This document shows positions 10,017-24,903 of a DNA stretch of 64,000 nt, piece after piece (the first letter of the stretch is position 1; the number at the start of each line of letters is the position of its first letter). The DNA lies in contig JALHNT010000037.1 of assembly GCA_022843385.1 (NCBI GenBank), positions 1-64,000 on the forward strand, given 5' to 3'. This DNA is from Anaerolineae bacterium. Its GTDB lineage: Bacteria; Chloroflexota; Anaerolineae; Aggregatilineales; Phototrophicaceae. Below the pieces are notes generated by a model, which did no database searches, had not been told where the DNA came from, and saw nothing but the letters and a program-made list of their open reading frames with translations. The translations under genes and the position numbers were made by a program.

Positions 10017-10060
10017 AGTTGTTAGTTCCTAGTTGTGAGTTCCTGGTTGTGAGTTTTTAG
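10017..10060. repeat. 7-bp period degenerate array (AGTTGTT AGTTCCT AGTTGTG AGTTCCT GGTTGTG AGTTTTT)
   Basis: Read directly; consecutive heptads beginning with (A/G)GTT. Confidence 0.75.
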
Positions 10061-10442: not shown

Positions 10443-10653
10443 CGGGTAAATCGTTATCTGGATATTTTCTTAACCTGCATAACCCCTCTGCGGCGGACAC
10501 CGGGTTGCGAGGCCTATTTTCAGAGGAATGGCCTAAAATGTCGTTTTGGCATGTCCAAGTATTCCCGGCGGGTCTGAACCGACTCAAGTCGGCTTCCCGT
10601 CGCAACCGGTCATAACAAACGCGAGCAATCGTAAGCAGACCGGACTTGTACTA

Positions 10654-10680
10654 AGAACTAACAACTAGAAACTAGAAACG
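10654..10680. repeat. 7-bp period degenerate array (ACTAAGA ACTAACA ACTAGAA ACTAGAA ACG), inverted relative to 10017-10060
   Basis: Read directly. Confidence 0.72.
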
Positions 10681-20654: not shown

Positions 20655-22265
20655 ATGAATCGATCAGGCCGCCGTCCGGCTCAACCGCCTGCCCCTCATC
20701 CCACTGCGCCGCGCTGGAATGCCCCGGCTTACCCGCCGCGCACACCGGCTGCCCCGCCACAACCCCGCCGCCCGGAGGCCAAACGTCGCGCCCCGCGCCT
20801 GTGGCTCTGGCTGGCCGCCGCGCTGATCGGCATGACGCTGCTGACCTGTGGCGGGTTGAGCCTGTGGGTGGGCCTGATCTATATGGATGGCATCCTGCCG
20901 GGTGTACAGGCCGGCGGGGTGGCGCTGGGCGGGCTGCGCGTCAATCAGGCCGAGCGTGAGATGGCTGAAGCCTGGTCAACAATTATCGTGCGCGACGAAC
21001 AGCGGGTCTGGCGTTTGCCACCGGCTGAACTGGGCATCACGCTGGATGTTGCGGCGACAGTTGAAAAAGCCAACGCGGTCGGGCGCAGCGATCTGAGCCG
21101 GACGCTGGCCGGACTGCTGGGGCGGGTGACGATTGAGCCGGTCATCACGGTGGATCGCGCTGCGTTGGAAGCCGCGCTGAACGCCAATGCCGAGCCATTC
21201 GCGCTGGAGCCGGTCAATGCCGGGGTGGCCTTTGCGGACGGCGAGCTGACCCCCACCGCGCCGCAGAATGGACGAGTGCTGGATGTGGGCGCGACGCTGG
21301 CGCAGGTCGAGCGCGACCCGATGACAGCGCTGGCGGATGGTCAGCTTGAACTGGTGATGCAGGCCATCGCTCCGGCGGTGACCGATGCCACGCCGATGCT
21401 GGAGCAGGCGCGGGCGCTGCTGGCGAATCCGCTGGACATCCGCATCTACGATCCGCTGACCGGCGATTCGGTGTACTGGTCGGTGCCGCCCGATCAATGG
21501 GCGAGCTGGTTGAGCGCGGTGTCTGACCCGGCCAGCCCCACCGGCCTGGCGCTGACGGCCAATGCTGCGCCGGTCGAAGCCTATCTGCAACAACAGTCGG
21601 CGGTGCTGGATGCCTCACGCTATCTCAAGCTGGAAGAAGCGGTTGCGAATGTTCAAGCCACCGTCGCGCAGGGGCGCACCACCCCCTGGACGCGGGTGTA
21701 TCATCGGGATCGCTCGTATGTGGTGCAGGCGGGCGAGACCATCACCAGCATCGCCTGGAATGTCGGCGTGCCGTATCTCTACATCGTCCAGGCCAACGGC
21801 GGACTGGAAGCCGTCTCGCCGGGGCAGACCATCACCATCCCGTCGCCCGACACCTTCCTGCCCTATGCCGTCAACCCGGACAAGCGCATCGTCGTCAGCA
21901 TCAGCCAGCAGCGGGTGTGGGTATACGAGAACGGGCAGGTCAAATGGGAGTGGCTCGCCAGCACCGGCATCGCCGACAGCCCGACCTGGCCGGGGCTGTA
22001 CCAGATCATCTCGCACGAGCCGAACGCCTACGCTGGCAACTGGGATTTATACATGCCCTACTTCATGGGCGTGTATCAACCGATCCCCGGCGCGGATTTC
22101 ACCAATGGCTTTCACGGCTTCCCCACGCGCGGCGGCTGGCAGTTGCTCTGGACCAACAGCCTGGGGACACGGGTGACGTATGGCTGTATCCTGTTGAGCG
22201 ACACCAACATCAAGCTGCTCTACGACTGGGCCGAAACAGGTGTGGTCGTCGAGATTCAGGCGTAA
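20655..22265 (+). CDS. L,D-transpeptidase with TM anchor, peptidoglycan-binding-like region and LysM
   Basis: LysM YVVQAGETITSIAWNVGVPYLYIVQANGG; YkuD catalytic HGFPTRGGWQLLWTNSLGTRVTYGCILLS. Confidence 0.9.
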   Translation: MNRSGRRPAQPPAPHPTAPRWNAPAYPPRTPAAPPQPRRPEAKRRAPRLWLWLAAALIGMTLLTCGGLSLWVGLIYMDGILPGVQAGGVALGGLRVNQAEREMAEAWSTIIVRDEQRVWRLPPAELGITLDVAATVEKANAVGRSDLSRTLAGLLGRVTIEPVITVDRAALEAALNANAEPFALEPVNAGVAFADGELTPTAPQNGRVLDVGATLAQVERDPMTALADGQLELVMQAIAPAVTDATPMLEQARALLANPLDIRIYDPLTGDSVYWSVPPDQWASWLSAVSDPASPTGLALTANAAPVEAYLQQQSAVLDASRYLKLEEAVANVQATVAQGRTTPWTRVYHRDRSYVVQAGETITSIAWNVGVPYLYIVQANGGLEAVSPGQTITIPSPDTFLPYAVNPDKRIVVSISQQRVWVYENGQVKWEWLASTGIADSPTWPGLYQIISHEPNAYAGNWDLYMPYFMGVYQPIPGADFTNGFHGFPTRGGWQLLWTNSLGTRVTYGCILLSDTNIKLLYDWAETGVVVEIQA

Positions 22266-22314
22266 AGCTCTGGCAACTTCGTTTTGTGTCGTCGGATAGA
22301 CAAAGACATAAAAC

Positions 22315-22335
22315 GAACACAGAGGACACAGAGTG
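22315..22335. repeat. ACACAGAG module, copy 1
   Basis: AACACAGAGGACACAGAG. Confidence 0.7.
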
Positions 22336-22462
22336 AAGACAGAGTCTTTCACTTTCAGGTTCGCATTTTGAACTTCTCAACCCATCTGCCGCCGGCGGAT
22401 CGGATTTGCGGTGGCGGAACGACGGGAGCGATCCGCCGCTAGGAACGGACAAGAAGAATTGA

Positions 22463-22600
22463 ACCACAGAGGGCACAGAGGACACAGAGAGGAATCAGAG
22501 GTCTTTTGCTTTCACCTTTGTACTCAGCACTTTCAACTCTCTGTCCTTGATTCACAACATTCGTCAGATTCGTCAGATTCGCATCAGTCCTTTTTGCGAT
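22463..22600. repeat. ACACAGAG module copy 2 followed by heptad and 9-bp period arrays
   Basis: CCACAGAGGGCACAGAGGACACAGAG; TTGTACT CAGCACT TTCAACT; ATTCGTCAG ATTCGTCAG ATTCG. Confidence 0.75.
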
Positions 22601-22629
22601 TCGTGAATCTTGTGCCGCCGTTTTCCCTC

Positions 22630-22670
22630 AAGTGTTGCAAAAGTTAGAACTGTTGCAAGTGTTGCAAGTC
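22630..22670. repeat. 9-bp period array
   Basis: GTTGCAAAA GTTAGAACT GTTGCAAGT GTTGCAAGT. Confidence 0.75.
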
Positions 22671-22729
22671 CACTTTTCTGCAACTCTATTTTTTGTCGTC
22701 GTCGTCGTCGGACGACACAGACAGAAAGA

Positions 22730-22830
22730 CCAACACAGAGAACGCAGAGGACACAGAGAGAAAGCGGAGCAAACCTGCGTCAAATTCTGCAAATTCGTCA
22801 AATTCTGCAACTGCAAAAGCTCCTTTTTTG
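22730..22830. repeat. ACACAGAG module copy 3 followed by 9-bp period array
   Basis: AACACAGAGAACGCAGAGGACACAGAG; GTCAAATTC TGCAAATTC GTCAAATTC TGCAACTGC. Confidence 0.78.
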
Positions 22831-22854
22831 CAGTTTGTGCAGAATAGCTTTCAG

Positions 22855-22965
22855 CCATCAGCCGTCAGCCGTCAGCAAAAGATCAACACAGAGTACACAG
22901 AGGACACAGAGAGCAAAGCCTTTATCTACCGACTATTGACTATCGACTAACGACTGACGACTACC
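22855..22965. repeat. ACACAGAG module copy 4 flanked by two 7-bp period arrays
   Basis: CATCAGC CGTCAGC CGTCAGC; AACACAGAGTACACAGAGGACACAGAG; CGACTAT TGACTAT CGACTAA CGACTGA CGACTAC. Confidence 0.8.
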
Positions 22966-23203
22966 CTGTGGCGGCGGCAGTCCCGATTGTGTGGCAGCAC
23001 TGCCAGTGGGCGATCCCACCTGACCCAGACGAGCGCACAGTATTGCACTCCTATGAGAAGCATACCCCCAATCCCCTGCTTACGGGTGAACTTTTGGTAA
23101 ACTTTTTGGTACGACTTAACGCGAGTCGGCGTTAACCGTTTTGCGGGAGCGGAAGAGTTAAGGGTGTCGGCGTGGGGTTAGAGAACGGTTGGGAAAAATC
23201 GGG

Positions 23204-23226
23204 GTTGAGGGAGCGTGTTTCGTGCC
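23204..23226. repeat. 23-bp direct repeat flanking the VapBC-like pair (left)
   Basis: GTTGAGGGAGCGTGTTTCGTGCC, 20/23 identical to 23960-23982. Confidence 0.65.
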
Positions 23227-23292
23227 TAAAGGCGACTGTCCTGCGTGCTATAATTGTGAGCAGATAATGTTGAGGGGAGCAGCGACAACATC

Positions 23293-23580
23293 ATGGTTCT
23301 TGTGCGATTGAAGGGACAGATTACGCCAGAGGGTCAACTGGTGTTTGATTTGCCAGACAACCTCCCTCCCGGCGAGGTCGAGATCACGCTGGAAACTGTC
23401 GATCAGAGTCAAGCCTTTAGCGAAAGCGAGATTGAAGAGCTGTTGACATTCACGCCGACCAGCGGTGCCGAGGTCGTGGCTGCTGGATTGGTTGGTGGTT
23501 GGGAACACCGAGGAATCAGTGATCCGGTGGCTTTTGTTGATGAATTGCGTCGCCAGCAACGGGAACGGCGGTCGTGGTAA
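23293..23580 (+). CDS. Putative antitoxin (VapB-like) of a type II TA pair
   Basis: 95 aa; stop overlaps the start of a downstream PIN-domain gene. Confidence 0.6.
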   Translation: MVLVRLKGQITPEGQLVFDLPDNLPPGEVEITLETVDQSQAFSESEIEELLTFTPTSGAEVVAAGLVGGWEHRGISDPVAFVDELRRQQRERRSW

Positions 23581-23957
23581 ACGCGATCATTGAAACCAGT
23601 GTGCTGGTTGATCTGCTGCGCGCCCATCCGCCGGCGCTGGCCTGGTATCAGGCGCAAACCCAACCGACACTAGGGATCACACCGATCATCTGGATGGAAG
23701 TCATCAGCGGTGGGATGAATAAGCCTGAACGACTGTACGCGGCGCGGCTGCTGAAACAATTCGTCATGATTTACCCGACCTCATCGGACTTCGATTGGGC
23801 GATGCAGGCACAGATGCGTTATGAACTCAGTCACGGTGTGGGCATGATGGATTGCCTGATTGCCTCAACCAGTCATCGATTACAGATACCGCTTTATAGC
23901 CACAACCTGAAGCATTTCGCTCCGCTGCTTGGCCCATTGGCGCAGAAGCCTTACTGA
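23574..23957 (+). CDS. PIN-domain toxin (VapC-like)
   Basis: IIETSVLVDLL ... YELSHGVGMMDCLIASTSHRLQIPLYSHNLKHF. Confidence 0.82.
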   Translation: MVNAIIETSVLVDLLRAHPPALAWYQAQTQPTLGITPIIWMEVISGGMNKPERLYAARLLKQFVMIYPTSSDFDWAMQAQMRYELSHGVGMMDCLIASTSHRLQIPLYSHNLKHFAPLLGPLAQKPY

Positions 23958-24078
23958 TAGTTGAGGGAGCGCGATTCGTACCCATTGGGTGGCGTTCGCG
24001 CCGACGATCTGCTGCACCCGGCGGCCTGCGCCGTCGTACTTGTAGCTGGCGCTGCCCAGCGACAGTATTTCGAGGTTT
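23958..24078 (-). pseudogene. RHS/YD-repeat protein fragment
   Basis: Reverse strand reads EILSLGSASYKYDGAGRRVQQIVGANATQWVRIALPQL. Confidence 0.75.
23960..23982. repeat. 23-bp direct repeat flanking the VapBC-like pair (right)
   Basis: GTTGAGGGAGCGCGATTCGTACC. Confidence 0.65.
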
Positions 24079-24718: not shown

Positions 24719-24903
24719 TGCTGGCATCCCTCTGTGCCAGCGATCCGTGCGCCGCTTGTCCGGTGCTCCCGGCGGCCTGCGCCGTCGTACTTGTGACTCG
24801 CCCCGACCAGCGACAGCATCCGGTTGGCGTGATCTCAGGTGGTGACGTTCGTCCCGTCGTGGGTCAGGTTGCTGCTGGGGTCATAGGTTGGCATTCGCGT
24901 CGG
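24719..24903 (-). pseudogene. RHS/YD-repeat protein fragment with in-frame stop
   Basis: Reverse strand reads YDPSSNLTHDGTNVTT*DHANRMLSLVGASHKYDGAGRREHR; TGA sits where YD repeats usually have TGG (W). Confidence 0.82.

What the first reader, a model, noticed from the sequence alone, without database searches (positions are those of the whole stretch)
22315..22965. Composite repeat cluster: four CACAGAG modules alternating with 7-bp or 9-bp period arrays
Four copies of ACACAGAG-NN-(C)RCAGAGGACACAGAG (22315, 22463, 22730, 22884) sit in 650 bp. The later copies are accompanied by degenerate short-period arrays. 9-bp: ATTCGTCAG x2; GTTGCAAGT x2 plus variants; GTCAAATTC/TGCAAATTC. 7-bp: CGACTAT TGACTAT CGACTAA CGACTGA CGACTAC; CATCAGC CGTCAGC CGTCAGC. 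The strict period with drifting letters implies an unusual generating mechanism, not plain simple-sequence slippage. Established: heptanucleotide STRR repeats are described in cyanobacteria, and translated HRGHRGHRE-type repeats recur in databases. Function is unknown to me.
Basis: partly seen in the sequence, partly recalled or inferred. Interest (0 to 1): 0.7.

Follow-up and report, generated by a model that had tools for sequence, protein, structure and literature searches.

The report
Patchwork repeat built from repeating hairpins
The stretch is one of about a hundred copies of a non-coding patchwork repeat in this bacterium, and its CACAGAG blocks belong to an apparently undescribed family of hairpin-forming DNA repeats that is scattered between genes in many bacterial phyla and can be gained, lost and flipped.

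Summary
Modules, 9-bp arrays and 7-bp arrays lie at the stated places, far beyond chance, and are strongly associated genome-wide: period-9 arrays are about 90 times and period-7 arrays about 26 times denser within 700 bp of a module than elsewhere. The cluster is one copy of a dispersed intergenic mosaic, with cassettes in a fixed order (M-K-B-C-D-M-E-G/J-F-H-I) and a conserved ~140-bp tail. The tail occurs 94 times in this genome and in none of 60 relatives searched.

Most arrays are arms of hairpins. In many other phyla the CACAGAG array is one arm of a full hairpin whose other arm is the same array reversed. Spacer lengths match between arms in 50 of 52 loci, and the arms covary. In the window's own genome the CACAGAG module has lost its partner arm (0 of 35).

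In Bacteroides the hairpin is present or absent at orthologous sites, is replaced there by another hairpin family, and was inverted in place between two species. I propose dispersed selfish hairpin repeats whose arms are kept alike by template switching, with unit slippage; this mechanism is inferred. The enzyme that disperses them is unknown, and REP/RAYT and a simple reverse-transcriptase link fail. New variant of a known kind.

The parts
22278..22317 (+). cassette D1: hairpin TTCGTTTTGTGTCGTC...GACATAAAACGAA
   Evidence: DNA fold z -4.2, no shuffle folds as well; D cassettes precede M in most clusters
22315..22333 (+). CACAGAG module M1 (two units of ACACAGAGG)
22338..22375 (+). degenerate 7-bp array K (CACTTT-type) after M1
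   Evidence: sequence; K family follows M in other clusters
22446..22500 (+). module M2 with its 5' leader (AAGAAGAATTGAACCACAGAGGGCACAGAGGACACAGAG)
   Evidence: similar leader before the first module in other clusters
22501..22545 (+). 7-bp array K (TTTGCTTTCACCTTTGTACTCAGCACTTTCAACT)
   Evidence: sequence
22549..22609 (+). cassette B: GATTCAC-(GATTCGTCA)n-T-rich loop-GCGATTCGTGAATC, 9-bp array between the two arms of a hairpin
   Evidence: 24 hits vs 0 control in 1.6 Mb; fold z only -1.4
22629..22685 (+). cassette C: GTTGCAA+NN array (9-bp) with TGCAAC 3' arm
   Evidence: fold z -2.5
22687..22729 (+). cassette D2: TTTTTTGTCGTCGTCG...GACAGAAA hairpin
   Evidence: 20 hits vs 0 control; fold z -2.1
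22731..22758 (+). CACAGAG module M3 (three units)
22776..22844 (+). cassette E: AAATTCTGC/AAATTCGTC 9-bp array and hairpin TTCTGCAACTGCAAAA...TTTTTTGCAGTTTGTGCAGAA
   Evidence: fold z -3.8, no shuffle as good
22849..22876 (+). 7-bp array J (TCAGC+NN)
22884..22911 (+). CACAGAG module M4 (three units)
22926..22965 (+). 7-bp array I (GACTR+NN); in other clusters paired with its reverse complement, array G
23078..23216 (+). conserved tail T of the dispersed element (GGGTGAACTTTTGGTAAACTTTTTGGTACG...GGGTTGAGGGAGCG)
   Evidence: alignment of copies; 94 copies in own genome, none in 60 relatives, none for control
20655..22265 (+). flanking gene (YkuD/LysM L,D-transpeptidase); its orthologs in same-genus genomes are not followed by such a cluster where this could be read

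Best explanation
The 22.3-23.2 kb cluster is one copy of a species-specific, dispersed, non-coding mosaic repeat: an ordered set of short hairpin cassettes ending in a conserved ~140-bp tail. Most periodic arrays are, or appear to descend from, arms of hairpins. Units read best as a paired core plus a short linker: 7+2 for CACAGAG-NN and GTTGCAA-NN, 5+2 for GACTR-NN, TCAGC-NN and AACTA-NN. The CACAGAG module is the local, one-armed form of a hairpin family found in many phyla: (A/G)CCACAGAG-NN-CACAGAG...loop...CTCTGTG-NN-CTCTGTGG(T/C). Proposed mechanism: these are selfish DNA hairpins. (1) The arms serve as mutual templates during replication, so intrastrand template switching copies changes from one arm to the other and can invert the whole hairpin; unit slippage changes array length. 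This keeps period and pairing strict while letters drift. (2) Hairpins accumulate between genes and nest in one another's loops, building mosaics. (3) In this lineage one mosaic was then copied to about a hundred sites by an unidentified activity. Shown: anatomy, association, dispersal, hairpin covariation, presence/absence and in-place inversion (the last two in Bacteroides). Inferred: template switching as the cause of covariation and inversion. Unknown: what copies hairpins or mosaics to new sites.
For: Dispersed mosaic: same cassette order in the 29 module clusters of a 1.6-Mb sample; 94 tails in the genome, none in 60 relatives; clusters lie in intergenic regions of all gene orientations. 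Hairpins elsewhere: 63 of 115 loci of the exact 26-mer have an inverted array arm within 300 bp, and by a looser count 64 loci do against 1 for the reversed word. Covariation: outermost spacer length equal in both arms in 50 of 52 loci (28.1 +- 3.3 permuted); paired cells 414 vs 337.5 +- 9.2 outside the array, 155 vs 133.9 +- 3.8 in linkers, 1400 vs 1391.7 +- 1.9 in cores. Period-7 letter changes crowd into two adjacent positions: 266 vs 243.6 +- 6.7. Inversion: the B. finegoldii hairpin between fcl and gmd matches that of B. ovatus at 70/74 inverted and 58/74 direct, while flanks align directly and two further genomes keep the ovatus orientation. Turnover: G063 and G152 have a 6-bp gap there; another site carries a CACAGAG hairpin, a CGCAGATTAA hairpin or none in different species. 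Nesting.
Against: In the window's own genome no module keeps its inverted arm (0 of 35), so hairpin pairing cannot be what maintains M there now; M arrays may be carried passively. The folds of M2 with K, of 22843-22965 and of the tail are no better than shuffles. The 7+2 reading is not significant within this genome's own 9-bp arrays. Spacer and base covariation were tested by permutation that ignores relatedness. No clean empty site with a target-site duplication was found for the composite, because synteny downstream of the window's locus is not kept in relatives. No enzyme was linked to it.
Confidence: 0.6

Rival explanations
1. Arrays are DNA copies made by a telomerase-like reverse transcriptase that re-reads a short RNA template, as DRT10 does (9-nt repeats in Eco3DRT10), and that were integrated into the genome.
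For: DRT10 makes precise 9-nt tandem repeats with variable motif (PMC12632851). In 61 relatives RT genes are commoner in module-rich genomes (14 of 20 vs 12 of 41, p 0.005); the own genome has RT hits.
Against: Six module-rich genomes, one with 84 modules, have no RT hit at all; modules and RTs both rise with genome size. A single RNA template does not predict matched inverted arms, variable linkers or in-place inversion. Integration of such cDNA is not reported in the passages read.
Confidence: 0.06
2. REP/REPIN-like elements mobilised by a RAYT (Y1 tyrosine transposase).
For: Intergenic, palindromic, high copy, patchy across phyla, like REPs (PMC3733652).
Against: The own genome has only a weak Y1 match inside an 863-aa frame, and a genome with 84 modules has none. 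No GTAG foot was seen in the hairpins inspected.
Confidence: 0.06
3. Functional regulatory RNA or protein-binding elements (terminator, mRNA stabiliser, translational operator such as proposed for TAACTGA repeats), kept by selection.
For: Arms covary across phyla; hairpins lie between genes, including between fcl and gmd of Bacteroides.
Against: No orientation bias to neighbouring genes (16 vs 14) and no enriched neighbour family; not conserved at orthologous sites; orientation can flip; no Rfam family above threshold.
Confidence: 0.15
4. Ordinary DDE-type MITE: the composite moves by terminal inverted repeats recognised by a transposase.
For: High copy, non-coding, species-specific burst, mosaic order.
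Against: By eye the 5' end (GAAGAATTGAACCACAGAGG) and 3' end (GGGTTGAGGGAGCG) are not inverted repeats of each other; no shared gene family near clusters; target-site duplications not established.
Confidence: 0.13

Closest known systems
GGGAATC / GGGGA(C/T)T heptamer repeats of Xanthomonas and Nostoc (PMC4692102)
   Same: Short-period (7-bp), heterogeneous, mostly few-unit intergenic arrays, often as two arrays in convergent orientation that can form a stem-loop (70 cases in Xcc)
   Different: G-rich, G-quadruplex forming, described in Xanthomonas and Nostoc; no 9-bp CACAGAG hairpins and no ordered multi-family mosaic
TAACTGA direct repeats of Beggiatoaceae, cyanobacteria and Bacteroidetes (PMC4679880)
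   Same: 7-bp intergenic arrays in distant phyla with no known transfer mechanism
   Different: Mostly oriented just upstream of start codons, one inverted repeat only; here no gene-orientation bias and hairpin architecture
REP elements / BIMEs / REPINs (PMC3733652, PMC3116915)
   Same: High-copy intergenic palindromes in several phyla, often downstream of genes, pairs in opposite orientation
   Different: 20-40 bp units with GTAG or CGTC foot and RAYT link; here arms are tandem 9- or 7-bp units, and no RAYT in the own genome
BoxC/PIT intrastrand triplex motif CCCTCNCCC-N-GGGNGAGGG-NNN-GGGNGAGGG (PMC4666352)
   Different: Fixed short sequence, G/C-rich purine arm, one extra repeat only
BrickBuilt MITEs of Porphyromonas gingivalis (named in PMC5771137; details from memory)
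   Same: Non-coding dispersed elements built of tandem repeats
   Different: Longer repeat unit and a single species; sequence relation not tested
STRR heptanucleotide repeats of heterocystous cyanobacteria (Calothrix heptanucleotides mentioned in PMC4692102; STRR named from memory)
   Same: Tandem heptamers, intergenic, dispersed
   Different: No 9-bp hairpin partner described; not compared by sequence here

Membership tests
REP/REPIN elements with RAYT | a RAYT (Y1 transposase) in genomes that carry many copies | tested here: not met
   own genome has only a weak hit in an 863-aa frame; G032 with 84 modules has none
REP/REPIN elements with RAYT | GTAG or CGTC unpaired tetranucleotide at the hairpin foot | tested here: not met
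   by inspection the feet are CCAC/GTGG with drifting outer bases; CGTC occurs inside arms, not at the foot
MITE | terminal inverted repeats | tested here: inconclusive
   single hairpins are themselves inverted repeats; the composite's two ends look unrelated by eye
MITE | target-site duplication at insertion sites | tested here: inconclusive
   empty sites found in Bacteroides relatives, but junctions too diverged to define a duplication
STRR / TAACTGA-type heptamer arrays | intergenic tandem 7-bp units, dispersed | tested here: met
   61 intergenic period-7/14 arrays in 1.6 Mb; GACTR, AACTA, TCAGC cores
STRR / TAACTGA-type heptamer arrays | position and orientation just upstream of start codons (TAACTGA) | tested here: not met
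   no orientation bias of clusters
BoxC/PIT triplex motif | CCCTCNCCC...GGGNGAGGG...GGGNGAGGG consensus | tested here: not met
   by inspection none of the cassette consensus sequences fits it
Known structured RNA family | match above Rfam gathering score | tested here: not met
   no match in window 21500-24000; only sub-threshold matches, nearly all generic microRNA hairpins, in eight other loci
DRT10 cDNA repeats | telomerase-like RT with an ncRNA whose template matches the repeat | not tested
   only RT presence was tested; six module-rich genomes lack any RT

The most novel reading that the evidence does not exclude
A bacteria-wide superfamily of mobile DNA hairpins whose arms are tandem core-plus-linker units (7+2, 5+2), recognised by shape and spacing rather than sequence, is spread between species and moved and flipped by an enzyme not yet identified; mosaics like the one in the window arise when such hairpins insert into each other.
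Probability: 0.3. Interest if true: 0.85.

Novelty: new variant of a known kind. Interest (0 to 1): 0.62.

Why it matters
The same 9-bp word, in the same hairpin layout, recurs in about ten phyla, including gut Bacteroides, yet no description was found in the literature library or Rfam. If the hairpins are mobile or self-correcting palindromes, they are a widespread, overlooked class of repeats with a testable life cycle (gain, loss, in-place inversion, nesting). The old question of why heptamer and nonamer repeats keep their period while letters drift gets a concrete answer to test: pairing between arms. They also create spurious ORFs and intergenic differences between species.

Tried and rejected
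RAYT/IS200 transposase as the driver: does not track modules. A gene family shared by cluster neighbourhoods: none. Terminator, 3'-UTR or promoter role: no orientation bias. Plasmid or phage origin: no match of the window cluster in either collection; the generic hairpin matches some Bacteroides, Gemmatirosa, Pseudoalteromonas and cyanobacterial plasmid records and six faecal phage contigs, none in E. coli. Enrichment of 7/9-bp arrays next to modules in other phyla: slight only (7.6 vs 6.6 and 9.7 vs 6.8 per 100 kb), so the tight module-array association is a property of this genome's mosaic. A clean empty site for the window locus: not obtained because relatives are about 74% identical and downstream synteny is lost.

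Full report
Observation. The window is part of contig 37 of a 7.85-Mb draft genome. Four CACAGAG groups lie at 22317-22333, 22464-22489, 22733-22758 and 22886-22911. The first has two units only. TRF finds the 9-bp arrays at 22559, 22629 and 22781 and the 7-bp arrays at 22851 and 22926. Dinucleotide shuffles give 0.11 modules per window, and 0.001 arrays of period 7 or 9 in the cluster against 8 observed.

Association. The module occurs 257 times in the genome, the reversed control 7 times. In 1.6 Mb of the genome, arrays of period 9, 7 and 14 are about 90, 26 and 23 times denser within 700 bp of modules than elsewhere, while periods 12 and 15, typical of coding sequence, are not. Autocorrelation in clusters peaks at lag 9 (0.336 vs 0.267 in other intergenic DNA) and lag 7 (0.300 vs 0.257).

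Anatomy. Reading the clusters side by side shows a small vocabulary of cassettes, each with its own sequence, in a fixed order with optional members: M, K, B, C, D, M, E, G or J, F, H, I and a conserved tail T. Reversed controls for most cassette probes give no or few hits. The tail (23078-23216 in the window) is about 140 bp, ends sharply after GGGTTGAGGGAGCG, and is present 94 times in this genome and in none of 60 relatives. The cluster is therefore one copy of a lineage-specific dispersed repeat. Orthologs of the upstream gene exist in same-genus genomes; in those whose downstream side could be read (G001, G004, G008, G009, G015) no such cluster follows, and G009 has one short 7-bp array there. 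Clusters are intergenic, in all gene orientations, with no common neighbour.

Hairpins. Several cassettes fold better than their shuffles as DNA: D1 z -4.2, E -3.8, C -2.5, D2 -2.1; B only -1.4; M2 with K, the J-M4-I stretch and the tail do not. The whole kilobase folds at z -3.6 (DNA) and -4.4 (RNA). Arrays G and I are reverse complements of each other, and in cluster C8:77260 a 7-bp hairpin sits in the loop of cassette C, so hairpins nest.

Beyond this genome. There it is usually one arm of a hairpin: 63 of 115 loci have the inverted array within 300 bp; a looser count gives 64 loci for the true word and 1 for the reversed word. In 50 of 52 loci the outermost spacer has the same length in both arms, 1 nt or 2 nt, against 28.1 +- 3.3 after permutation. 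Base pairs outside the array, in the linkers and in the cores all exceed shuffled pairing (414 vs 337.5, 155 vs 133.9, 1400 vs 1391.7). These permutations do not correct for relatedness. In 301 sampled Chloroflexota genomes the three-unit module is patchy, present in 24.

Core plus linker. The 9-bp unit reads as a 7-nt core and a 2-nt linker and the 7-bp unit as 5+2. In the own genome, changes in period-7 arrays crowd into two adjacent positions (266 vs 243.6 +- 6.7); coding arrays do not show this, and for period 9 the test is not significant. So 5+2 is supported here, while 7+2 rests on the cross-phylum hairpins, where the core was part of the search.

Dynamics. Gut Bacteroides carry the same hairpins. 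Between fcl and gmd, B. ovatus, G257 and G224 share one hairpin (flanks 93-94% identical to B. ovatus). In B. finegoldii (flanks 90%) the hairpin matches the ovatus one at 70 of 74 positions when inverted and 58 of 74 when not, loop included. G063 and G152 have only 6 bp between the two genes and Phocaeicola massiliensis has no hairpin. At a second site different species carry a CACAGAG hairpin, a CACAGAG hairpin with 3-nt linkers, a CGCAGATTAA hairpin, decayed remains, or nothing. In G061 two copies of a 170-bp nested hairpin lie in unrelated flanks. Presence/absence, replacement, nesting and inversion are thus seen directly; their mechanism is not.

Mechanism. The simplest account I can give is this. 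An array arm and its inverted partner are templates for each other; replication template switching at the hairpin corrects one arm to the other and can invert the hairpin; slippage adds or removes units. Off-period changes break pairing in all registers and are lost; letter changes spread to both arms. That yields strict period with drifting letters. Template switching at inverted repeats is established bacterial biology (own knowledge); its role here is inferred. How hairpins and mosaics reach new sites is unknown. RAYT transposases and reverse transcriptases do not track the modules cleanly. In the window's own genome modules are one-armed (0 of 35 have a partner), so they are probably carried along by the copying of the mosaic.

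Known relatives. Xanthomonas GGGAATC heptamers arranged as convergent arrays (PMC4692102), TAACTGA arrays (PMC4679880), BoxC/PIT triplex hairpins (PMC4666352), REPs (PMC3733652) and BrickBuilt MITEs (PMC5771137) are the nearest kinds. None covers the 9-bp hairpin family or the ordered mosaic, and Rfam has no match above threshold. I file it as a new variant of dispersed palindromic repeats.

Noticed in passing
window 23293-23957: Small gene pair just after the tail: a 95-aa protein without Pfam match followed by a PIN-domain protein (PF01850, E 3e-8); looks like a VapBC-type toxin-antitoxin pair.
   Followed up: partly
window 23957-24060 and near 24757: The last ~20 bp of the tail (GTTGAGGGAGCGCGATTCG) recurs next to antisense fragments that look like RHS-repeat coding sequence; the same fragment follows the tail in at least two other clusters (C1:76690, C3:76650).
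   Followed up: partly
window 10017-10055 and 10649-10680: Isolated 7-bp arrays of the AACTA/TAGTT type without CACAGAG modules; this family is spread through the genome away from clusters.
   Followed up: no
G407:C1:3267907-3268531: CACAGAG modules recur at about 101-bp spacing, six listed copies, a satellite-like array in another Chloroflexota genome.
   Followed up: no
L369 (986-1139) and L394 (882-1045): Two Bacteroides hairpins with a nested insert that match better inverted (141/165) than direct (119/168).
   Followed up: partly
L373 and L390: Orthologous Bacteroides hairpins in which the inner spacer differs, 2 versus 3 nt, in both arms together.
   Followed up: partly
L136, L351: Other hairpin array families beside CACAGAG: CGCAAAT/CGCGAAT with 3-nt linkers, CGCAGATTAA.
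   Followed up: no
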